DNA from: Cristatella mucedo
Taxonomy: Eukaryota; Bryozoa; Phylactolaemata; Cristatellidae
Assembly: GCA_009760855.2 (NCBI GenBank)
Contig: WPIO01000061.1
Location: 1,193,501 to 1,257,500 of the forward strand
Length of the DNA stretch: 64,000 nucleotides
Direction of reading: 5' to 3'
The stretch's first letter is position 1; the number at the start of each line of letters is the position of its first letter. Of this stretch, positions 401-61,560 are shown piece after piece. The translations under genes were made by a program, and so were the position numbers. The notes under the pieces are model-generated. The model was given only the letters and a program-made list of their open reading frames with translations, was not told the origin of the DNA and searched no databases.

Positions 401-535
401 GTATAGTCCATTTGTATAGAGAGCGCCTTGATTGAACTTAGTCTATATTCAAGCACTACACGTATGCCACGTGGCCCGAGCCCAAAACCTTGGTCGTCAA
501 AGGAGATCACCTTAACACTTGAACCAAATCAGGGT
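401..535 (-). mobile_element. SINE-1 copy, diverged
   Basis: On the minus strand it carries the tRNA-like head (degraded box B near ggcccgagcccaaaaccttgg) and the L2-like tail, recognisable from ccatttgtatagagagcgcc. It is diverged from the better copies at 36492 and 28806. Confidence 0.65.
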
Positions 536-898
536 GCTAAAGCTTACAGTTGCGTCACTTTTTTGAAGCCAATAAGTCTCAAAAGCCCAGAATTCAACGG
601 ACATCACTTACAGGGAAGCACGTCAGTGTAGCGATTCCTTTTCTTGTTGTTTGGAAGCAGTGCCACGTCCACACCACTTAAATCTGCCCGGTATGAGCAT
701 AGTGACTGCCATTCCTCGTCCAGCCGGTCTTTGTTCTTTAGGTGATCTTCCATATACGACTGCAAGTTGGTAGTTCAACGTCAATTTAATTATTCAAGCA
801 CCGTGTCAGAAGAAAGATTAGCACATGCACAATCAACAAAAGATGCACGAAATTACGGTAGACACAAGACTGAGGCATTCTACATTCGGCTTCTCACT

Positions 899-900
<2 letters not shown>

Positions 901-951
<51 letters not shown>
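901..951. repeat. (CT)n microsatellite
   Basis: An uninterrupted CT array of about 50 bases. Confidence 0.98.
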
Positions 952-953
<2 letters not shown>

Positions 954-1223
954 CATTTCTTTTGATCTATCCCAGCCCTCCAGTACGAAGAAATCTCACA
1001 ACTCCCTTGCTGTATGTATATCTGACATCCTCACACGGACGACAGCAATTTTTTTAAATTGAAAGATGATAAACCAACTTGTTAGTTATGGGCAAACCAT
1101 GTGTGACTCAGAAATTAAAAAAACTTAACACTAAAAATCGGGTCTGCGAGTATATCTCCTGTTGCGTCAGCAGGGAAATCTAGGTGTCTTTTACGAAGTG
1201 ACCTTTCGCTAGACGACCACATC

Positions 1224-1371
1224 TGGCCGAGCTGGTTTGACCCAGCTGTTAAGGTGCTCGCCCCGACCGAGGTCAGGCTGAGGTCGTGGGCTCGAGCCCC
1301 ATGGCATATGTGCAGCGCCTGAATAGAGATTACATTCTCTTCGGGTGCTATACAAATGAATTATAAATACA
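1224..1371 (+). mobile_element. SINE-1 copy nested in L2-A
   Basis: The tRNA-like head contains box A (ttaaggtgctcgcc) and box B (gaggtcgtgggctcgagccc). The tail ends gcgcctgaatagagatta and gctatacaaatgaattata. It splits L2-A exactly between gaccacatc and atcagcccc. Confidence 0.85.
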
Positions 1372-1410
1372 TATATATGCATATATATATGCATATATAT
1401 ATATATGGGG

Positions 1411-1469
<59 letters not shown>

Positions 1470-1471
1470 GG

Positions 1472-1514
<43 letters not shown>
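1372..1514. repeat. (TA)n array with two inverted copies of its right edge
   Basis: The array is interrupted at 1405 to 1419 and 1466 to 1480 by atggggctgatatat. This is the exact reverse complement of atatatcagccccat at the right boundary (1509 to 1523). Confidence 0.9.
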
Positions 1515-1517
<3 letters not shown>

Positions 1518-2288
1518 CCCCATTGCCAAGACTGCCTACTTTCCCCCAACCTAACGCTGCTAAAACTCGGGCTAGCTTAGACAGGGATATTAAATTCAAA
1601 TTTGTTTATGCATTTGTAACATCCCGTCTCAACTTCTAAAGCTCACTGCTCACTTGTCTACTGGCCTGTGCAATCAGGCGCTTGCAGTTGGTGTAAAACT
1701 CTGCAACTAGCCCTGTCTATCGTGAGCGTCGCAGTTGCCACATCATACCAGTTCTCAGCGACCTGCTCTGGCTTCCGATCAAGCCGTGTATAGACTTCAA
1801 GGTTGTGTCACTCACTTTTATGTCCGTTCCTTCTCTGGCTCAAGCCTACCTATTGGAAGTAGTCCGAATAGCCATCATGCCATCTGCTTTTCTGAATCAA
1901 TTTGTTTACCTACCCTTCGTACGAGCCTCAGATTCTTTGAAAACCGAGCTTATAGTTCATATGGTCCCAAGGCCTGGAACGCACTCCCGACGGATGCAAT
2001 GACATCCTCAGACTTGAATATATTTAAAAGAAAGCTAAAAACGTCCCTACTTTGATACCATTTGGCGGGTCCTTATGATTTGTTCATTATGTGCTCATGA
2101 ATGCTGAAACAGGGCATGCTGCCACTAATCACATGTACATGTTGATACTGTGCATATCACCCTAACCATGTTTTTGTTTGCTGAAATTAGGCATGCTTCT
2201 ACTCACCGTTTGATCATGCTTAGTTTACAGCACATTTAAAGTGCCCATACATTGAGTTCTCTGTGTTCGCTGAGCAAATGTATTATCA

Positions 2289-2300
2289 TGATTATCTCTG

Positions 2301-2352
<52 letters not shown>

Positions 2353-2440
2353 GCTATCTATGTATCTATTTATCTATCTATCTATGTATCTATCTACGTG
2401 TCTACCTATCTATCTATCTACGTATCTATCTCCATCTCAA
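2289..2440. repeat. (CT)n followed by (TATC)n
   Basis: A CT array of about 60 bases grades into imperfect TATC repeats (tctatctatgtatc and similar). Open frames here are artefacts. Confidence 0.95.
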
Positions 2441-3015
2441 TTTCTATCGCTCTACCAATGCCCAGCCCCCAAGCAGACTTTGCTGAGCTGCCCTGCAAAT
2501 ATTGTGCCAATTGTGCACGGTTTCCCAACTTTGTGTGAATTTGAGGCCGCTTAATATATGCTTCGAAAAAGCTAATACAAGTTTGTTAATGGTTACATTC
2601 TTTGATAGCCAATGCGATTAAGAAGTGTTTGCCGTCGAATGTCAACAGTTGTCCAGGCAAGCACCTCCTGCTGCTGTACTTAATAGCCAGCTTCTGTTAA
2701 ACGAGCGTTTAAATGGGTAGCTGTGGCTTGGTAATGAGTGAAAGCGAGACCAGGCTAGTGGTTCTCTTAACTGGGCTCTAGCAGTGCTGATCAGTTAGTT
2801 AAATTGCACAATGGTTGAAAGTTCGTGAAACCCGAAATATTTCTGTGTCTAAATGAATGGAGGACAATCATTGCACACTAATACGAACCTAATAGCAGAA
2901 CACAGGAATATTCTACAAAGTGGCCTGTATAATTGACAGTGCTTATGCAGTGTACCTTAGTACCTGCCGCTGATGGCGTTACCGCTATAGGAAAATTATT
3001 CCTGATCAACTGCCT

Positions 3016-3165
3016 ATAATAATAATAATAATAAGAATAATTCATTTGTTATAGAACTCCCAGAGAACTAATTCTCTTGATAGGCACTTTGAAATTGCTG
3101 CATTGGATGCATGATCGAATGGCTAGTGGTAGCACTCTCAATGACAAAAAGTATAACCCTAGAAA
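3016..3165 (-). mobile_element. L2-A 3' end
   Basis: An (AAT)n tail is followed on the plus strand by the antisense 3' hairpin (gagaactaattctcttgataggcac) and part of the 3' untranslated region. The copy is short and 5'-truncated. Confidence 0.75.
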
Positions 3166-3696
3166 CCTGTCACGCTCAAAAGACCTGATGTTTTACTTGG
3201 AGAGCTGCAAAGGATGCAAATTCTTGTCCAACTCGTTGTAATTGCTTGACTCACTAAAGCATTATTAGTCCATGCTTGATTTGCTGTGTTCGGTGATGTC
3301 CCTTCTGGATATCTGAATCTTTAAAATGCCACACTGGCTTGTGGTAAGGCTGCTGTTCCAATCTAGCAGCTAAGACCTTTTCCAATCAATGTGCCAGTCA
3401 AATCCAAGTAATCCCGAGTAATCGGTTCACCCAGTTTACTGTTGGGCCCATACATTTCTGGACTTGGAGAATCGACTCTGGTGGTTTCCGATCCTCGAAT
3501 GAAGACAGCTTTCGCTTAGCAGCGTTTCGATGCAGCTTCGACTTTGCTGGCTGCTGCTTGCTAATATTACAGATTCAAAGGCGCAGGCTGGGTCAATACC
3601 CTTCAGAGCAGGAAGTAAATGTGCTGGCAACAGAAAAAGGTTAGACCATAATTGAGCCGTAATGGGCGTAATAATGCACATGCCGTCGAATGCAAC

Positions 3697-4345: not shown

Positions 4346-5237
4346 ATCCATCTGAAATATGTCAACCTCTACATACATGTTTTGATCCTACACGGCATCT
4401 ATCTTCAGCTTACAGCACGAGGGCGTCTACGTGTTGCTTGAGCTGAATAGCCGGGCCAGAGCACAATGAATTGTTGGGTGCATGCACCTTCGACAGGCAT
4501 ATCACAGAATTCGTTATGAATCTAAAGGGATTCGTTCGAGAGCAGGCGAGAAGAAAGTGCTGGCATACAGTATTTTGGGCATGCAACTGTCAGCCTAGTC
4601 CATCGGCTCACCAGAATCATGTGACCCGTCGACACGTCCATGCTGCATACAGCCGGTTCCTCACTCCTGCAATTAACAGACAGTTCAGTGACAGCAATTT
4701 GGTTCTGATTCGTGCAAAGCAGCTTTCATGCTAGTGCCAACAGACTTCCGTTGATGAAAGCTTGCCAGGGCGCTTGCACTGCCAGCAGTTGCACTCTAAA
4801 CACTTCCCAACAACACTCAATTGAAGCACTGCCAGCAGCAGCAGCAACTTTTGGCCAATAGCCAGCAGATTTAGCCTCTGCAGTCAGCTGCTGTTTCTGC
4901 AACATTAGCTGTCTGGTCTACGCAAATAAGAGCAAGAAAAAAGAGTCAGAAAGAAATTACTTAGCAAGAACTCTACTTCCATAGCTGTAAAAACAAGAAT
5001 CTGCGACATCTTGTATACATTGTTGACTTCACAACGCAACTGTAGCAAATTCTCAAGTGTAGAGTCTCGGAAGTCGGAGAACTCAATAAGTAAGCTTGTG
5101 AGACTTTTCTGATTTTGAGCTTGATCAGCAGCTAATGATGGTCAATTCTGAATTACTTTTTCTTAGTAACACTGCGCTAGGATAAGGAAGAGCATGGCTG
5201 GAATCGTGGAATTGCCTATATGGGAGTAATCAAGTTA

Positions 5238-7700: not shown

Positions 7701-7877
7701 AAAAAATACTAGCTGATTTAACAGCCTCTATTGTATAGCAACAGAAGAACCCTGACGGCTATCACCACCGCTTGCAGTGGCGATAAAGAATCCCCCACCG
7801 CAGGATTCAAACTCACAAGCTCGGGACCGAAGTCATGAAAAGCAACCGCCTTACCAAGTGTGCCATCATGGCTCACC
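7701..7877 (-). mobile_element. SINE-2 copy, full length, with target-site duplication
   Basis: The antisense element runs from actagctgatttaacagcct to the tRNA-like head ending atggctcac. The flanks share gtagaaaaa (7697 to 7705 and 7878 to 7886), a 9-bp target-site duplication. Confidence 0.85.
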
Positions 7878-14289: not shown

Positions 14290-14570
14290 AATCGCAGATT
14301 CTGGGGAAATGTGCCTCACAGTTTACGTCTGTGCCTCGATTCTGGTACTGTCTTGTGTGCCCCTGCAAGCATCTCGCTGCCTTGTCGTGAAGTGACCTCG
14401 GAGTAATATTAGACGATGGAAATTTAATTTTAGATCACTTCATCTATTTATCTGATGGTATAGCAAGAGGTCCAGATGTGTCATTTTGAACAAGCGAGAA
14501 ATTTAAGATATAGCGCATACATCAGGCAATTTTGTGTACGTTCAAACTGATTTTTAAAACTTGTCTTTTC

Positions 14571-15581
14571 CAGAGTATTGACGTGAATGGACAAAGACCA
14601 TCTGAAGTACCTCTGAAATATGGAGTACCTCAGGGCTCCGTGCTAGGTCCGGTTCTTTTCACGCTTTATACTCTCCCTCTTGCTGATGTGATTGCCAAGC
14701 ACAATCTAGGCTTTCACCTGAATGCGGATGACACTCAGTTGTACCTTTGCTTTGACTCCTCACAGCCTTCGAGCACCTCAAATTCTCTCAACTCACTTGC
14801 TGCATGCATTGATGACATCCGCACATGGATGGCAGCAAATTTTCTAAAACTAAACGATGACAAAACTAACTTACTAGTTATGGGCAAACCCAGTGTGATT
14901 CAGAGATTGGAAAGGCTGACTCTCAAAATGGGCTCTGCCAGCATTTCTCCTGTTGAAAAAGCTTGAAATCTATGTGTCATATTCCAAAGCGACCTCTCAC
15001 TAGACGACCATATCAGCTCCACAGTCAAATCCGCCTATTTTTAGCTTGATAACATTGCTAAAATTTGGGCTTGTTTAGATAAGGATACCACATCTAAGTT
15101 AGTCCATGCATTCATGACCCGTCTCGACTTCTGTAACTCACCTCTTACTGGCCTACCAGCATGTGCGATCAGGCGATTGCTGCTGGTGCAAAACTCTGCA
15201 GCCAGGCTTGTCTGTCGTGAGCGTCGCAGTTGCCACATTACTCCACTTGTCGCCGACCTGCACTGGCTACCAGTCAAGCAACGGATTGACTTCAAGGTTT
15301 TGTCGCTCACTTTTAGGTCTCTTCATTCTATGGCTCCGGCCTATCTCTCCGACATACTACCCCATCAGGCCAAGCATCGTACCACCCGCTTTTCGGAATC
15401 CAACAGTCTACAAATACCTCGTACAAACCTCAAATCCTTTGGAGACCGTGCATTTAGTTCGTATGCTCCCACAGCCTGGAACTCCCTCCCGACCTGCGTC
15501 AGAACATCCCCTGACCTGACCACATTTAAAAAGAACTTGAAAACACACCTATTTAGGACAGCATTTAGTGGGTCCCTGTGA
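14571..15581 (+). pseudogene. L2-A reverse transcriptase, C-terminal half
   Basis: The frame reads GVPQGSVLGPVLF (RT motif 4), then NADDTQLYLCF at about 14721, where the family has YADD, so the catalytic motif is altered. It continues with LKLNDDKTNLLVMGK. Downstream are the thumb and C-terminal motifs DFCNSPLTGLP, HWLPVKQRIDFKVLSLTF and RAFSSYAPTAWNSLP, which define the L2/CR1 group. Two in-frame stops (about 14964 and 15042) interrupt an otherwise single frame, so the decay is recent and due to point mutation. In a complete element this protein carries an apurinic endonuclease and RT for target-primed insertion. The endonuclease part is absent here. Confidence 0.88.
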
Positions 15582-31120: not shown

Positions 31121-31836
31121 GCCAGGTATTCGCTCACTCAATCTTTATGTAAGTACGCACGGTATCGAAGCCCTATTCCTCCATGAAACCAGCGACCGCC
31201 TAGAGGCCCGAAGCTGCTCCGATTTCTTGTAAGAGTCTTGCAAGGACCTGCAATTAGGCTGACTTCCTTAGCAATCTGATTACCTGACCGACTGCAGATC
31301 CACTCGGCTCTACCACGGCTCGCTGCTACGTTGAGCTACGGTCTATAGCCTGCGGCATGCTGCGGAGTTGGCCTTTTCTTACATAAGCCAACTATCCTCA
31401 ACGATGAAACTTCGATCTGAATTAGCGCCACCCGTAGGTCTTCAATATGATAAACGTTCACAAGCAGTCACCTAACGATCACTTAAGCCACTTTTGCGTC
31501 TTGCTTCTGTCCTACTTCGGTCTTCATTCTTGCACGAAAATTACACGGTCAGTTGTCCTTCCACCTTGCATCCTACTTGCTCTTCCCCAAATTGTTCGTG
31601 GGAAAATTGCGTATGCTAGGGAGGTAGGAAATGCCCATCCACCGCGATGCACCTCCCTGTGAAGTTTATACTTCACGATTGCCTTTATCGCTCGCCGTCT
31701 CACTATCTGATTTTTACATGAAGAACTTCTCACAAACATTGACTCTGTGGAAAGCTTCGACGATTTCGGTGGTCAACTTGTCCATCATGCTTTTCAAAGC
31801 AATGAAGAGGCATATCCGCGAAGGCGAATAGGGTTT

Positions 31837-32012
31837 GTGAGCCGAGATGGCTCACTAGGTAAGGCGGTTGCTTTTCATGACCTCGGCCCCGAGGTCGTGG
31901 GTTTGAATCCCGTGATGGGCGATCCTTCATCGCCACTGCAAGCGACGATGATAGCCGTAAAGTCTCTTCCGTCGCTATACAAAAGAGGCTGTTAAATCAG
32001 CTAGTATTTATT
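31837..32012 (+). mobile_element. SINE-2 copy, well preserved
   Basis: Full head (gagccgagatggctcactag, box B gaggtcgtgggtttgaatcc), body (gcgatccttcatcgccactg) and tail (gttaaatcagctagtattta). It serves as the reference for the family. Confidence 0.9.
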
Positions 32013-36638: not shown

Positions 36639-37492
36639 CATGTAGTCGACTCGGAATAATTACTGGCCTCCACTATTCGTTACAAAATCTAAAAAATGCA
36701 GATTAAAGCTTAAGATATTGTCATAAAATAGAGTTGTTGAGTTTGACTGAAATTGAAGATCAATTAATTTGAAAATGAGCGAAGGAGCTCTTGGAGCCAA
36801 TAAATATTATTGATCACACGCATCAGCACTGCAAACTTAGTTTGAGAAAGAAAGCATAACTATAACGTTTATTTGGCTGCCGTTATAGGCTTTAGCCAGA
36901 TGACAAGCCCGGCAGGGAATAGTTTCATTGGAAATTGGCCGCTAGCCATTCAATTTGAAACTATCGTCAACGATGCGGTAGCAGCATGTTTACATTGACT
37001 TAGCATATACGTTATCGGTCAAGACACCCCACGCTGCATACGGCAAGTTGTGGCAAACTGTCATTTTCACGCTGCCAAACCCTGGTTCAATAATAGTGCT
37101 CTATAGCCGCGAAAGCAAAACCTACTGTCAGCCTGAGATCCACAGTTACGTATTTGGATGCTTTGCTTAGATGAGCAATGAATGCCACGCACAAAGAAAT
37201 CGTTGAGTGCATTAGCCACATGCAGCCACAACGCCAGTGAGCGTCGGAGTCATGAGGTTCGCTTTTGTGCCTGTCCATACAATGGCTCACACGAACGCAC
37301 ATTACTTACCTGTACGTCACAATTGTGTGCGGGCGTAAGTTTTTCCGACCGCTTTTACCTAGTACTCATTAATATTACGTCAGTTGATCTGCTACTTCCT
37401 AAGCTTTCACAAGCTGGCACCATCGCGTCTTAAAAGTGAAATTCACCCTCCACGCGCAAAGCTTCAGCATTCTGATCAAAGCTCGGGCTTAC

Positions 37493-38062
37493 CGCTTTGT
37501 TTTGAGGAAATCATTTGCTTCTTTCCCTTGGTGGTGGTCCCGCGCGATCCGTCGTTTCGCTGATTTCCGTGGCTTGGTGAGCTGCCACCACGACTGTCTA
37601 TCCTGCTTCCTTGCACGTCATCCATCAGACCCACGAGGAGCCGCAGCGTTTTGAGATCCGTCTCGCTCAGCTCGCTGAGCTCTCGCAACTCGTTCTCCCC
37701 TCGCGGTCGTCCCATCGTCTCCTCCTCCTCCGTCCTCCGTCGGGGTTTAGTAGTGCTCGGCACTTTCCGTTCATCTCGGCCTCGATATGAACTTCTATCG
37801 CTGCCAAGATTCACACCTCGTGCAGTCGGCAGCGTGGAGTCGTACCTACTGCAAACACTGGCTCGAAATATCGTCTGCTGCCGATATGAGCGAAGCACGG
37901 CGTCGACTAGGCATTGGGTGTACGCATCTTTCCACGAATATCCCATCACTAACAGATCACTTAGAACGTCCTCCAGCGTATCCCTGAGATTGGCGTCAGC
38001 CTTGTACCAGTAGCCGCCATTTCTGTCATCGAGCAAGTTACTGCACAAACCAAACAGATTGT
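37493..38062 (-). CDS. Exon 2 of IA-2/PTPRN-like gene: RESP18-homology domain
   Basis: This is the best evidence for the gene. The 190-residue exon opens after a good acceptor (CTCTTCATTTGTAG) and closes at a strong donor (GCG/GTAAGC), both phase 1. Near its start is FGLC, matching the FGxC of vertebrate RESP18-homology domains. At about residues 43 to 55, SWKDAYTQCLVDA corresponds to the family's (S/T)WxDDxTQxVI motif. At about residues 126 to 147, LRELSETDLKTLRLLVGL-type sequence matches the conserved helix LRQLTPEQLSTLLTLLQLL of IA-2. A basic cluster (KPRRR, about residues 106 to 110) could be a prohormone-convertase site, since the ectodomain is processed in known members. The remainder is Ser/Thr/Gly-rich and probably disordered. 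The RESP18 domain acts in the vesicle lumen in sorting and granule biogenesis. The reverse strand is also open for about 120 codons, but it lacks the motifs and splice sites. Confidence 0.78.
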
Positions 38063-38382
38063 CTACAAATGAAGAGTGCAATTGAAAACATGAGGCGTTA
38101 GGTGGCGCCTACTGTGTGCCTACTGTGCATCGCTTTCGGCTCCTGCTTAAGGACATTGCAAATTGATAGGTGAAGAGCAGAAAGTCACCGATGGCTGACA
38201 AAGGAAGTCAATGTGGCTGACAGAGGAATTTAATTTGGCCACTCATTCTTCTTTGCGTTTTTTTTATTTCTGCTTGCTTAAATGTATAAGGTTTGAAGCA
38301 AAGATTAAGATAGCCTCTTCTGCCTTTAATTGTACTAACGAGTGAGTCTCTAGATGAGCTAGACAATGTGCCGCTGTAAGGA

Positions 38383-53499: not shown

Positions 53500-53930
53500 T
53501 TGAATGTACCGAATCTGGATGGTGGCATCGTCTGGTGTGACGCCAGCAGCCTTGCGATCGGCATATACCTGGATATTTAGGTGGAAGAATAGTAGAGGAT
53601 GCCTCCTGGCTGCGGAAAGCTGACGACGTAGCCCGCATCAACCTTTGCTGAGCTGGGGGCGGTCATTAAGGACCTGGCAATTGCTTGGTCCTTTCGGCAG
53701 GAAGAGACTCGGACAGATTTAGCGACTGTCTACGGATGACTACAACCGCTGCTGATTGGGGATAAGCCTGTACGAGTCCGCGGCATGGGGGAGGCGCTCA
53801 TCACGCGAAGCACGAGCATTAACATTGGCTAGCATTAATCGCCCACAGGGTGTCGAGTGCGAACTGCAAGCTTCGGTAGTCCAGGTGCGATCGTCCGACA
53901 AAAAGCCGACCAGCTGACCCGCGTGGCTCA
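53500..53930 (+). pseudogene. Gypsy RNase H relic
   Basis: In broken frames I read VWCDASSLAIG (first catalytic Asp, about 53540), FAELGAVIKDLAIA (catalytic Glu, about 53645), DLATVYG where DSATVYG is expected, and KADQLTRV (about 53900) where the last Asp of the active site lies. Stops and shifts separate these pieces. Confidence 0.72.
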
Positions 53931-53989
53931 GAAGTGAGTGAGTGTGAATCTCGTGCTGTTTCGCTCTTCCAGAGCAGGCGTCTTCACCG

Positions 53990-54850
53990 CAGTTAGCATT
54001 GACTTGCAAAGTTTCCACGGCCTTCGGGGTAGACAGGACACTCTACTTTGCCAGAATGTGCCACCCGGAAGCTGCTATCCGGCGAAAGGACATCGAAGCC
54101 TACGTGAAGGCTTGCCCTCGTTGCAAATCGATCGATCCTGCACCAGTCGCATGCAGTCCGGGCGTGCTGAGTGTATTTGAGAACTGGCAGTGCCTGACCG
54201 GCAGCGTAACGCACTCAAAGGGCCAAACTATCCGACCGTAGTCGATTGTGGGCCTAGCCTGTTTGCTATTTGGAGGCGAATACTTGATGAAGGAGAAAAC
54301 TTGTTGCAGCGAAATCTTGACGAAATTGTTTAGGGAGTGAGGTGCTCCGCTGCAACTGCTCATGGATAACGGCGCGAGTTTTTGTTCAGCCGCTCTATGC
54401 GGTCTTTTCGACCGTTTGGGGCGTGGAGACTCACTACCGTTGCGCCTATACACCCTCAGGCGACTGCAACGTTGAGCGGAATTATGGGACCATCAAGGGA
54501 GTGGCTGCCCGCACGGGTAAGGAAGTCCTGACACCGTTATATTAGTACAACATCTCGCTAACAGCAGGGTTAGACGAGGAACCGGTGCCCAGCAGAAGGC
54601 TATTCTCCTGCGAGTGGAGACGCCCTCTCGTCAGGGCACACACGAATCAGGGCCCTAGGACGATGGGCGACGCGGTCGCCCATCGAATTTTTGTGAAGCC
54701 CCCAGGTGCTCGTTGTACAACAGAAAGGCCCGAGAGCACGGTGACCAGCGAGGTATAGTGGGTGGGAATTAAAGTCGACGGTGCGTCGCCACGTGTCCGA
54801 CCTAGGCCTCTAGCCAGGGCAGAAAGAGGCACTCCCTGCCCCCAAAGTCG
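53990..54850 (+). pseudogene. Gypsy integrase relic
   Basis: The zinc-binding domain keeps its C-terminal cysteines (CPRC followed by KSIDPAPV, about 54114). The catalytic core shows VVDCGPS (first Asp, about 54237), LMDNGASF (second Asp at 54364) and CAYTPSGDCNVE (Glu at 54474), in different frames. The Asp-to-Glu distance of 110 bases fits D-35-E plus a one-base shift. The C-terminal part (GDAVAHRIFVK, about 54665) follows. An 11-bp perfect inverted repeat (cgatgggcgac/gcg spacer) lies at 54661 to 54685. Confidence 0.8.
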
Positions 54851-54925
54851 ACAGAGCTGAACCAGCGGCCGCGGCCCAGGCGCACTGTGACACTTCCTCG
54901 CCGCGACGATGAAGATGTTTCAACC

Positions 54926-55112
54926 CAGCGGTTCTCAACCTGTGGGTCGCGACTCCTTAGGATGTCGAATGACACTTTCACAAGGGTCGCCTATGACCAT
55001 CGGAAAATACGCATTTCCACATTTTGCACATAATAATTTTATGGTTGGGGGCCGCCAAAACATGAGGAACTGTATTAAAGGGTCGCGGCATTGGGAAGGT
55101 TGAGAACGCCTG
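54926..55112 (+). mobile_element. hAT MITE of the SPIN/URR1 type
   Basis: A 187-bp element begins cagcggttctcaacctgtgg and ends ggaaggttgagaacgcctg, giving 16-bp terminal inverted repeats with 14 matches. It is flanked by tttcaacc (54918 to 54925) and ttttaacc (55113 to 55120), an 8-bp target-site duplication with one mismatch, as expected for hAT transposons. Inside are gggtcgcgac, gaccatcggaaaatac, attttatggttgggggccgc and acatgaggaactgtattaaa. From memory these are near-identical to the ends of the non-autonomous SPIN/URR1 elements known from vertebrates. It has no coding capacity. Confidence 0.85.
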
Positions 55113-55120
55113 TTTTAACC

Positions 55121-56480
55121 TGATAACTAACTAGTGCTAAGCGTCATAATTTCCTTTGCATTTGCATGATCTTGAGATCAGAGGGAAATGTGACTGATTT
55201 ATTTCAGTGCTATAAGCGCATGGGCCGGCGGTTCTTATCGTCATGTTATTACCACTTCGGTTTATGGCCTAGCCGTATTTATGACCCAGTGGAGTTTATG
55301 GCGCACCAAAGACTTGTGTGTCATGCCAGTTTATATGGAAAGGGTGTATGAGGGAGGGCGAGTCGAAGCTTCCTGAGTGAGGAAAGCCAGGTCGAACGCC
55401 GGTGGAGGGCAGGACAGCTGTGTTAGGGAGCGCTGTGAGCGCCCGCCAGAATATACGTCTTTGTGAGCCCGTTTCGGCGTTTTGCGTGCTTTTGCATATG
55501 TGCAGTTGGCAGAGCATTGAACTACAGAACGCATCGCAAGCATTGCCAAACGTAGCTCATGCAATAAAGCCGATAGGTCGGCGCAAATTGGCGGAGCGAG
55601 AATTTCCATCGGGGGGCAAGGCCCGAAAAGTTGTTGTTGTTACAGGGGGCATGACCGACAAGATTTACATATAGGCAGGGCTGGAACCATCATTGATTGC
55701 AGAGTATAGCACAAAAGCAGTGTCTCTTCGACACAAACTCGGTGGTCGCTCAACGAGTGGAACTTGGGCCAGGCCCATTTCTTCGTCGCGTTGCGGGCAG
55801 TCTACGGGGGCGTAGGAATAGAGGGCGGCCCGAGTCGCTGCCCCGCTGTACGAGGGCAGAAGGGCAACTGCCTCCCTGCCCCCTGGCTTCACCACTGTGG
55901 GTGAGTTAATGCAGCAGCTCGGCCGACGGTCGAGCCAGGCGGTTACCCGTGGTTACATGCGCTCGCAGTCCGCCATCAACGACAGCGCGGGACCTGCTTA
56001 GGCACATGCCTGGCTCCACCATAGGGGCGATGCCGGGGGCGGCGGCGCTTCCGGGTTCGTCAAGCTCCGCAGCGCTCGCTGGAGAGGACGGCGGCGGCGC
56101 TACCGCACCGTAGCCGGCTAAACTCGCGGCCACCACGGCGCCAGGCCGGCCGCCGTAGTCATCGCTTGCCGGCGCTCGCCATCCGCAAGAGACCAGCGGA
56201 GGCGACATTGGCAGTTCCCGCTGGGCGACATCAATTGGAGCGACCGTACTTACCGCGCGGGGTCAGAGCTGGGGCAGCTTCGAACGAGCGCGCCCGCTAA
56301 ACCGCCGCCGACGTGCCGCCGAGGGCCGCCGTCTCCATGAGAGCGGGAGGGGGTGGGCCATCTTCAGTTGGACCGCCTCGCACGCGATTGTCGCGTCTGC
56401 ATCGCCCCGCCCGGCGCAGCGGTCGTGCATGAGCACGAGAGAAATGCAAGCGTTTGAAGTCGGTCGGCAGCATTCGCCGG
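55121..56480. other. Unassigned, GC-rich in its second half
   Basis: No gene or repeat family is recognised. The part from about 55.7 kb is CpG-rich and open in several frames. The stretch directly after the MITE may include the rest of the gypsy element, but no LTR could be identified. Confidence 0.3.
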
Positions 56481-56485
56481 TCGTG

Positions 56486-56518
56486 GGGGTACCGCAGCGG
56501 TCGCCGCTGCGGTACCCC
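56486..56518. repeat. Perfect 33-bp palindrome (15-bp arms, 3-base spacer)
   Basis: ggggtaccgcagcgg, spacer tcg, then the exact reverse complement. Hairpin-forming on either strand. No poly-T follows. Confidence 0.95.
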
Positions 56519-56720: not shown

Positions 56721-56900
56721 TAAAATAAATACTAGCTGATTTAACAGCCTCTTTTTGTATAGCGACAGAAGAGCCTTGACGGCTATCGCCACCACTTGCA
56801 GTGGCGATAAAGGATCGCCCACCACAGGATTCGAGCCCATTACCTCGTGGCCGAGGTCGTGAAAAGCAACCGCCTTACTTAGTGAGCCATTACGGCTCAC
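56721..56900 (-). mobile_element. SINE-2 copy, near consensus
   Basis: Complete from actagctgatttaacagcct to agtgagccattacggctcac, with box B on the minus strand (gaggtaatgggctcgaatcc). Poly-A-like start (aaaatagataaaataaa). Confidence 0.9.
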
Positions 56901-57638
56901 CAAGGAGGATGCGTTCGGAAGCGGGCCGATGCCACGTGCAGACGCGCGTCTCGTGACAGGTGCGAGATCGTAGCGTAGATCTGTGGTGAATGAGACACCG
57001 AATAAAACCAATTCTTGCAGTAGCTTGCCGACCAGTGTGCGCTCCGGAAGTCGTGCGTTTGATTGCCAGAGCCTGTCTGGTGCACTTTCAGCGACTCAGG
57101 TTTAATGTTAAAGGCGGAGACTTGAGCGATGCACGAACATTCAACGACGATGTCAGTCAACTATAAAGGGCAGTAATTACGAAGTAGTTATCATTTTTAA
57201 AGCACTCCGAGCAGTAAAGCGCAGCCCACTCGTGCATTCATGACGTACATCCGAATCATATTTGTTGTGGCTGAAAGTGTCTTTGGCTAGTACTGTGGAC
57301 AAGTCTCCAAGTCGCTACAGCGAGTAAGGCATCCACCTGTGACCGGTGACAGTGCGGCAACGACCGACTGCGGCCGCCGTGCAACTTCTTGTAAGTTCAG
57401 CAGCAGCCGTCTTTCGGAAAGACTTTTACAGACAAATGGCTACTGCTTCTCTCTCTCCCCCCACTCAGCATTAAATATCGGCGAACAACGGAACCCTTCA
57501 ATACGTCTAGCTGTTCCAGATCACGATCTTCGTGTTTTCCCGTTCAAGAGACGTCCATCGACTGCTTTTTCCAGTTTTCCCACAAGTTTTTGCTGACTTT
57601 CACCCACCCTACGGCTCAACTTACCTCATCCGGATATA

Positions 57639-59753: not shown

Positions 59754-59940
59754 CACAAAAAATCCTAGCTGATTAAACAGCCTCTTTTTGTATAGCGACA
59801 GAAGAGCCTTTACGGCTATCACCACCGCTTGCAGTGGCGATAAAGAATCGCCCACCGCAGGAATCGAACCCACGACCTCGGGACCAAGGTCGTGAAAGCA
59901 ACCGCCTTACCTAGTGTGCCATCACGGCTCACTAAAACAT
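59754..59940 (-). mobile_element. SINE-2 copy with 11-bp target-site duplication
   Basis: Near-consensus full-length element. ccctacatcca flanks it at 59743 to 59753 and 59941 to 59951. Confidence 0.93.
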
Positions 59941-60359: not shown

Positions 60360-61560
60360 CAATTCGGGAGTAAGTTCCAGGCTTTGGGAGCATGCGAACT
60401 AAATGCACGGTCTCCAAAGGATTTGAGGTTTGTACGAGGTATTTCTAGACTGTTGGATTCCGAAAAGCGGGTGGTACGATGCTTGGCCTGGTGGGGGAGT
60501 AGATCTGATAGGTAGGCTGAAGCCAAAGAATGAAGGGACCTAAAAGTGAGCGACAAAACCTTGAAGTCGATTAGTTGCTTGACTGGTAGCCAGTGCAGGT
60601 CGGCGAGAAGTGTGTGAGGTGGCAACTGCGACGCTCACGACAGACAAGCCTAGCTGCAGAGTTTTGCACCAGCTGTAAGCCCTGATCGCACATGCCGGTA
60701 GGCCAGCAAGCCGTGAGTTACAGAAGTCAAGAGATGTCACAAATGCATAGACCAACTTAGATGTGGTATCCTTATCTTAAAAAGCCCAAATTTTAGCAAT
60801 TTTATGTAGCTGAAAGTAGGCAGACTTGACTGTGGAGCTGATGTGGTCGTCTAAAGAAAGGTCACTTTGGAACATGACACCTAGATTTCGAGCTGATTCA
60901 ACCGGAGATATGCTGGCAGGGCCAATTTTAAGCATTGGCCTTTCCAATTTCTGAATCGTACTTTTTTTGCCCATAAGTAAGAAGTTAGTTTTATCATCAT
61001 TTAGTTTAATAAAGTTTGCTACCATCCATGTTCGGATGTCATCAATACATGCAGCAAGGGAGTTGAGATAATTCGACGTGCTTGAAGGCTGGAAGGGATC
61101 AAAGCAAAGATACGACTGAGTGTCATCAGCATAAAAGTGAAGGCCTATATTGTGCTTGGCAATCACATCAGTAAGAGGGAGAGTATAAACCATGAAAAGA
61201 ACCAGATCTAGCACGGAGCCATGAGGTACCCCAAATTTCAGAGGTAACTCGGATGATCTTTGTCCGTTCACATCAATACTCTGGAGTCTCCCATTGAGAT
61301 AGGACCTGGACATTGCAGAGCAGTGCCAGTGATGCCCAGGCGAGATGAGGGGTGCTCAAGAAGAACTTTTCTTTTGTTAATGCATAATTCACGAATCTTA
61401 GCAACAGCATTAAGATCTAGGAATGCATTTGATCTACGATGACGCAGCGATAATAGCTGCACATGATCATAATTAACATGCAGGTTACTAGCCGCCGGCG
61501 TAGCTAAGGCCACCGCCTGCTTGGGAGACCAAGAACTTCGATTTTCGGAAGAATTCTGCA
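60360..61560 (-). mobile_element. L2-A LINE relic with YADD motif and a 5' fragment
   Basis: On the minus strand it reads from a 5'-type coding segment (VQLLSLRHRRSNAFLDLNAV, about 61460) directly into the RT (SYLNGRLQSIDVNGQ, about 61300), then GVPHGSVLD, FYADDTQSYLCFD (about 61115) with an intact catalytic motif, and the C-terminal region to about 60360. The endonuclease and first half of RT are deleted, and the 3' untranslated region with its hairpin is missing. Two long frames remain open, 61313 to 60777 and 60625 to 60212. Confidence 0.82.
60777..61313 (-). pseudogene. L2-A reverse transcriptase fragment
   Basis: A 178-codon open stretch covers RT motifs 4 to 7: FGVPHGSVLDLVLF (motif 4, Gln changed to His), FYADDTQSYLCF (catalytic YADD intact), MVANFIKLNDDKTNFLLMGK and DLSLDDHISSTVKSAYFQL. 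The family frame is lost at 60777 by a stop. It is closely related to the copy at 14.6 kb and likely to be a dead 5' and 3' truncated insertion. Confidence 0.85.

What the first reader, a model, noticed from the sequence alone, without database searches (positions are those of the whole stretch)
54918..55120. SPIN/URR1-like hAT MITE in an invertebrate genome
The element has hAT hallmarks (8-bp target-site duplication with one mismatch, short TIRs starting CAG). Long blocks such as acatgaggaactgtattaaa and gaccatcggaaaatac match, from memory, SPIN/URR1 elements of mammals and other tetrapods. SPIN elements are a known case of horizontal transfer across animals, reported also from a blood-feeding bug and a pond snail. 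A copy beside a dead gypsy element in this genome would add a host or a parasite link.
Basis: partly seen in the sequence, partly recalled or inferred. Interest (0 to 1): 0.88.

Follow-up and report, generated by a model that had tools for sequence, protein, structure and literature searches.

The report
SPIN/URR1 mini-transposon in an invertebrate genome
A short jumping-DNA remnant in this invertebrate genome is one of a large family that matches, almost letter for letter at both ends, a "space invader" element known from mammals and reptiles, which points to transfer between distantly related animals.

Summary
Window 54926-55112 is a 187-bp hAT MITE with a 7/8 target-site duplication (TSD) and 14/16-bp inverted repeats, inserted in the 3' end of a dead gypsy pol. 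Its family is large: 88 exact matches of a 29-base end (control 0), 2202 first-look candidates in 572 Mb. A consensus of 40 copies matches rodent URR1, recalled from memory before any other copy was seen, at 76/76 (5') and 79/81 (3'); other recalled hAT MITEs match only at the TIR. A URR1 interior 39-mer, half of it absent from the window's element, occurs 37 times with up to 3 mismatches (control 0); two such loci are longer URR1-like elements. TSDs follow nnnTAnnn, as in Buster/SPIN hATs. Contamination is rejected: insertions lie in this genome's own repeats, the mitochondrial contig uses the invertebrate code, and a nuclear mitochondrial copy shares a contig with a MITE. No autonomous partner was found, but that search was incomplete. 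SPIN in invertebrates is already known: a new host of a known kind. No database SPIN record could be compared.

The parts
54918..54925 (.). left copy of the 8-bp target-site duplication, TTTCAACC
   Evidence: 7/8 to the right copy; nnnTAnnn preference over 30 loci
54926..55112 (+). 187-bp non-autonomous SPIN/URR1-type hAT MITE, too short to code for a transposase
54926..54941 (+). left terminal inverted repeat (16 nt)
   Evidence: 88% complementary to the right arm
55097..55112 (+). right terminal inverted repeat; at element positions 183-184 this copy departs from the family consensus
54944..54950 (+). GGGTCGC motif, 1 of 4 in the element (the others at 54984-54990, 55049-55055 as GGGCCGC, 55080-55086); possible subterminal transposase-binding repeats (inference)
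55113..55120 (.). right copy of the target-site duplication, TTTTAACC
54040..54925 (+). dead gypsy-like pol remnant (integrase and C-terminal stretch, frames broken); the MITE lies in its last codons
   Evidence: (Integrase_H2C2 E 0.009, below cut-off); integrase-core likeness judged by eye from recall
55121..55126 (+). TGA TAA directly after the duplicated target, in the gypsy frame when the element is left out
   Evidence: flanks joined to show the empty site
613..759 (-). exon of the host's IA-2/PTPRN gene (25 of 49 aa identical to recalled human PTPRN, E 7e-11), used to judge the host
4612..4662 (-). likely exon of the same IA-2/PTPRN gene (13 of 17 aa identical, E 0.006)

Best explanation
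The feature is a fossil copy of a non-autonomous SPIN/URR1-type hAT transposon (Buster group) that came into this invertebrate lineage by horizontal transfer and spread to roughly a thousand or more copies. Shown: the ends, the 8-bp nnnTAnnn duplications, empty-site paralogues, a copy number of that order, and more than one internal form (187 bp, about 317 and about 443 bp). Inferred: that a SPIN transposase made by an autonomous copy bound the TIRs and perhaps the repeated GGGTCGC motifs, cut the element out and pasted it into TA-centred targets; and that the source was another animal rather than descent from a shared ancestor.
For: End-to-end match of the window copy to recalled URR1, 68/76 and 74/81 in the two end blocks. 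The consensus of 40 genomic copies is 76/76 and 79/81 to the recall, which was written after reading the window but before any other copy was seen; at 13 of the 15 window-to-recall mismatches the consensus carries the recalled letter, at the other 2 it carries the window's. A URR1 interior 39-mer, whose first 19 bases are not in the 187-bp form, occurs 37 times with up to 3 mismatches, reversed control 0. L085 matches recalled URR1 at 197 of 215 aligned columns and L086 at 203 of 224, both in gapped alignments (L086 much more gapped, so its figure flatters), both with 7/8 TSDs of the nnnTAnnn kind read by eye. 88 exact matches of a 29-base end, control 0. TSD at least 7/8 in 30 of 40, with T at position 4 in 53/60 and A at position 5 in 53/60; PMC3499496 (passages) gives nnnTAnnn for TcBuster and puts SPIN in the Buster family. 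Joined flanks of 7 of 31 insertions align across the junction to other sequence of this genome. Recalled MER5A, MER20 and a MER3-like element match only at or near the TIR, besides chance words.
Against: No database SPIN/URR1 sequence was available; the reference is recalled, and a text search for six SPIN oligos found no paper. The middle 30 bp of the 187-bp form is not URR1's; over the full length the consensus-URR1 alignment has 174 identities in 225 columns with 38 gaps. No autonomous SPIN copy was seen: 0 of 8 fetched stretches (3.6-3.8 kb each) out of 138 hAT transposase matches carry SPIN ends, and the Buster-type transposase query did not complete. The host species is unknown, so host divergence was not measured. 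The 40 copies are the best matches to the window copy, not a random sample, and 10 of the 40 lack a 7/8 TSD.
Confidence: 0.88

Rival explanations
1. A SPIN-related but separate Buster-group hAT family inherited vertically in invertebrates, with ends kept alike by the needs of transposase binding.
For: Another hAT with a TA-centred TSD is present here: L078 has a 14/14 TIR and TSD TACTGATC/TACTAATC. TIRs and subterminal motifs are under selection while a family is active.
Against: 76/76 and 79/81 identity reaches far beyond the TIR, and longer forms share interior sequence too. Non-coding DNA is not expected to stay this alike since the split of vertebrates and this host (established knowledge). 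All rests on a recalled reference.
Confidence: 0.08
2. Vertebrate contamination or a chimaeric contig.
For: None found; the family is best known from tetrapods (recalled).
Against: Window CpG observed/expected 0.95. Joined flanks of 7 of 31 insertions align across the junction to repeats of this genome, for 4 of them also in this window. Mitochondrial contig with AGR=Ser, ATA=Met, TGA=Trp at COX1 sites. A 97% NUMT on C166, a contig that also carries MITE copy L020. Copies on many contigs, most of the fetched ones on contigs over 1 Mb.
Confidence: 0.01
3. A convergent CAG-type hAT MITE with only its ends like SPIN.
For: hAT-Charlie MITEs share a CAG.GGTTCTCAACC start (recalled; seen for recalled MER20).
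Against: Recalled MER5A, MER20 and MER3-like match at most 20 bases at the ends, besides chance words, against the full length for URR1.
Confidence: 0.02

Closest known systems
URR1 / SPIN_NA (non-autonomous SPIN elements of tetrapods; host range recalled, with SPIN_Ml, SPIN_Og, URR1_Xt and SPIN_NA_6_Et named in a table of PMC3017861, passage)
   Same: Both ends (76/76, 79/81), the GGGTCGC motifs, Buster-type TSD, and in longer copies part of the URR1 interior (reference recalled).
   Different: The window's form is 187 bp, shorter than the recalled 225-bp URR1, with its own middle of about 30 bp. Host is an invertebrate.
SPIN in Rhodnius prolixus (SPIN_NA_12_RP, SPIN_NA_13_RP; PMC11614815, passages)
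   Same: Invertebrate host, non-autonomous SPIN, inferred horizontal origin.
   Different: That host is a blood-feeding bug; this host's mitochondrial gene order is unlike the insect pattern (recalled) and no feeding link is known. Sequences not compared.
SPIN-like hAT of Biomphalaria glabrata, about 1,000 copies (PMC5440852, passages); Lymnaea stagnalis SPIN (recalled)
   Same: Probably lophotrochozoan host, copy number of the same order.
   Different: A pulmonate is unlikely here by mitochondrial gene order (recalled pattern). Sequences not compared.
TcBuster and other Buster hATs (PMC3499496, passages)
   Same: Superfamily, 8-bp nnnTAnnn duplications.
   Different: No TcBuster sequence compared.

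Membership tests
SPIN/URR1 (hAT, Buster group) | 8-bp TSD with nnnTAnnn preference | tested here: met
   30 of 40 loci at least 7/8; T 53/60 and A 53/60 at positions 4-5 in those 30; control 5 of 240
SPIN/URR1 (hAT, Buster group) | short TIRs of the type CAGYGGTTCTCAACC | tested here: met
   reference recalled
SPIN/URR1 (hAT, Buster group) | high identity to the SPIN/URR1 consensus well beyond the TIR, better than to other hATs | tested here: met
   76/76 and 79/81 to recalled URR1; interior found by a separate search; other recalled hATs at the TIR only. Not checked against a database record
SPIN/URR1 (hAT, Buster group) | autonomous partner with SPIN transposase | tested here: inconclusive
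   138 Dimer_Tnp_hAT matches; 8 fetched, none with SPIN ends; Buster protein query unanswered
Horizontally transferred transposon | element divergence far below host divergence | tested here: inconclusive
   element side: near identity to a recalled mammalian consensus; host side not measured, species unnamed
Horizontally transferred transposon | patchy presence among relatives of the host | not testable with these tools
   the genome has no relatives here
Vertebrate contamination | contig of vertebrate origin | tested here: not met

The most novel reading that the evidence does not exclude
This lineage was a reservoir of SPIN rather than an end point: it holds more than one non-autonomous form, including ones with interior sequence of mammalian URR1, so the same SPIN pool seeded both this invertebrate and tetrapods, possibly from invertebrates to vertebrates.
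Probability: 0.15. Interest if true: 0.75.

Novelty: new member of a known kind. Interest (0 to 1): 0.55.

Why it matters
SPIN is one of the clearest cases of DNA moving between animal phyla. A further invertebrate host with about a thousand or more copies, more than one internal form and a mitochondrial gene order unlike that of the known bug host would widen the host range. It would also help to test how and in which direction these elements moved.

Tried and rejected
Rfam on the window: nothing at gathering score; on the element with E up to 5: one snoRNA match at E 1, far below its gathering score. A SPIN 27-mer from the window in viral contigs and in bacterial/archaeal genomes, and a 23-mer of the consensus in viral contigs: 0. 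Element consensus in phages and plasmids: no match. The window's LINE protein in viral and genome contigs, to find named host contamination: no relative. The ORF at 37479-38108(-) looked by eye like the N-terminus of IA-2, but Pfam, tblastn and PDB did not support it; dropped. Host guesses of lamprey, tick, tapeworm and trematode were considered. Vertebrates and flatworms are excluded by the mitochondrial code (AGR=Ser, ATA=Met); ticks are disfavoured by gene order (recalled). The uniform hAT family (63 of the 138 transposase matches score at least 69 bits, counted by hand) was considered as the partner; the one copy fetched (L077) has no SPIN ends. LTRs of the gypsy remnant: no such repeat pair within 53500-56500; not sought beyond.

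Full report
The observation. Window 54918-55120 holds a 187-bp element flanked by TTTCAACC and TTTTAACC (7 of 8), with 16-nt terminal inverted repeats that are 88% complementary. No second copy was found in the window. As single-stranded DNA it folds better than its shuffles (z -2.8, 2 of 200 as good), as expected of a TIR element.

Likeness to SPIN/URR1. No library of eukaryotic repeats is on hand, so I wrote down rodent URR1 from memory, after reading the window, and aligned it: score 205, other strand 27, at most 35 in 300 shuffles. The end blocks match at 68/76 and 74/81. Recalled MER5A, MER20 and a MER3-like element, which have similar ends, match only at or near the TIR, besides chance words. 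A recalled reference is only a lead, so I tested what it predicts. First, copies from the same genome: one search listed 41 matches, from 40 candidates scored out of 2202 in the first look. Forty loci (39 others plus the window copy) were fetched. Their consensus is identical to the recalled URR1 in the first 76 bases and at 79 of the last 81. At 13 of the 15 places where the window copy differs from the recall, the consensus carries the recalled letter; at the other two (positions 129 and 162) it carries the window's letter. A few other copies share the window's letter at each of the 13 places, which is expected because they were picked for likeness to it. The middle, about positions 77-106, is not URR1's; over the full length there are 174 identities in 225 columns with 38 gaps. 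Second, a 39-base stretch from the recalled URR1 interior was sought in the genome; its last 20 bases are also in the 187-bp form, its first 19 are not. There are 37 matches with up to 3 mismatches, 0 for the reversed pattern. Two of these loci were read. L085 holds an element of about 317 bp (197 of 215 aligned columns identical to URR1; TSD CACTAGAG/CACTAGAT) and L086 one of about 443 bp (203 of 224; TSD GGTTAGAC/GGTTAGAG). The ends and TSDs were read by eye; both alignments are gapped, L086's heavily in its middle, so its figure flatters. The first 19 bases of the 39-mer could not have come from the window element's own letters.

A hAT of the Buster group. Of 40 loci 30 show a duplication of at least 7/8 when the ends may shift by a few bases, against 5 of 240 displaced controls. 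Across the 60 target copies of those 30, T stands at position 4 in 53 and A at position 5 in 53, i.e. nnnTAnnn. PMC3499496 (passages only) reports nnnTAnnn for TcBuster and places SPIN in the Buster family.

Insertion. The frame starting at 53900 runs, with breaks, through gypsy-integrase-like stretches (by eye; Pfam gives only Integrase_H2C2 at E 0.009, below its cut-off) to ..LPRRDDEDVST; when the element and one target copy are left out, TGA TAA follows in frame. So the MITE most likely jumped into the last codons of an already present gypsy pol. Joined flanks of 31 insertions (the 30 with a TSD, plus one) were compared with other sequence held from this genome: for 7 (L015, L021, L025, L037, L043, L046, L047) there are alignments at 70-87% identity that reach at least 15 bases on both sides of the junction, for 4 of them (L021, L037, L043, L046) also in this window. 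A search for other copies of the gypsy flank did not complete.

Copy number and age. 88 exact matches of a 29-base end (54 forward, 34 reverse; control 0). Eighteen 10-kb stretches that I placed at round-number positions on large contigs (177.5 kb without N) hold two copies, 7.5% and 10.5% from the consensus, which scales to 6,445 copies with a 95% interval of 781-23,282. The 29-mer count scales to about 530-2,200 copies at 6-10.5% divergence. About a thousand or more is the safe statement. The 40 best matches differ from the consensus by 5.8% on average (3.2-8.0%); the window copy, at 8.0%, ties for the most diverged. They were chosen for likeness to the window copy. No rate is known for this host, so no date is given.

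The host. The genome has 572,011,866 bases in 688 contigs and no name. The window's CpG observed/expected is 0.95; in 18 other stretches it is 0.54-1.42, mostly below 0.9. One exon of an IA-2/PTPRN gene (25 of 49 residues identical to recalled human PTPRN, E 7e-11) and a likely second (13 of 17, E 0.006) lie on the minus strand with splice-site-like borders. The 21,008-base contig C688 is mitochondrial. In COX1, AGR reads Ser, ATA Met and TGA Trp at sites that I judge conserved, which excludes the vertebrate, ascidian and flatworm/echinoderm codes (established knowledge). ND1, ND6, CYTB, ND4L, ND4 and ND5, named by eye, lie in that order on one strand, with COX2 and ND2 on the other, a block that I recall from chitons and other lophotrochozoans and not from insects or pulmonates. 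A 97% nuclear copy of mitochondrial DNA lies on C166, which also carries a MITE copy (L020). Vertebrate contamination is therefore rejected. Nothing shows a parasite or blood-feeding host.

The autonomous partner. PF05699 has 138 matches (150 of 766 candidates scored). By my count 63 of these score at least 69 bits and look like one uniform family. Eight of the 138 were read in stretches of 3.6-3.8 kb: none has SPIN ends. One (L078) is a different hAT with 14/14 TIRs and a TSD with TA, in one copy, at its centre. The direct query with a Buster-type transposase did not complete. The transposase source is thus inferred.

Mechanism. Shown: TIRs, nnnTAnnn duplications, empty-site paralogues, more than one internal form. 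Inferred: cut-and-paste in trans by a SPIN transposase, with binding at the TIRs and perhaps at the four GGGTCGC-type motifs. Horizontal arrival is the best reading, because non-coding DNA this alike is not expected after the split of this host from mammals; the host-side divergence was not measured.

What is known. SPIN has been reported from Rhodnius (PMC11614815, passages) and a SPIN-like hAT with about 1,000 copies from Biomphalaria (PMC5440852, passages); Lymnaea is recalled. The listings of searches showed me no further invertebrate host, but I opened only eight of the papers, each for passages only, and the host here has no name, so whether this case is in print cannot be said.

Noticed in passing
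window, many places between 961 and 61355: Many partial copies of one L2/CR1-like LINE (RVT_1 matches at 14514-14963 and 60780-61355); matches in 17 of 18 other genome stretches.
   Followed up: partly
window 7701-7876, 31834-32012, 56724-56903, 59757-59935: A repeat of about 180 bp at 85-89% identity, possibly a tRNA-derived SINE by its B-box-like stretch (the SINE reading is by eye).
   Followed up: no
L077 and 62 other places: A uniform hAT family, 63 matches scoring at least 69 bits by my count, several with an open frame of about 640 codons: looks young and perhaps active.
   Followed up: partly
L078 (C321:2301400-2305200), 503-3200: A hAT of about 2.7 kb with 14/14 TIRs CAGGGGTGTCCAAC and TSD TACTGATC/TACTAATC, transposase frame of 422 codons.
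   Followed up: no
contig C688 (L055, L056, L058): 21-kb mitochondrial contig with repeats of about 2.1 kb containing an ND3 fragment.
   Followed up: partly
L051/L054 (C83:1326-5235): A COX1-like stretch only 74.6% identical to the mitochondrial contig, with stops: an old nuclear copy or another organism.
   Followed up: no
L012 (C676:2827900-2828603): Two MITE copies in opposite orientation about 100 bases apart.
   Followed up: no
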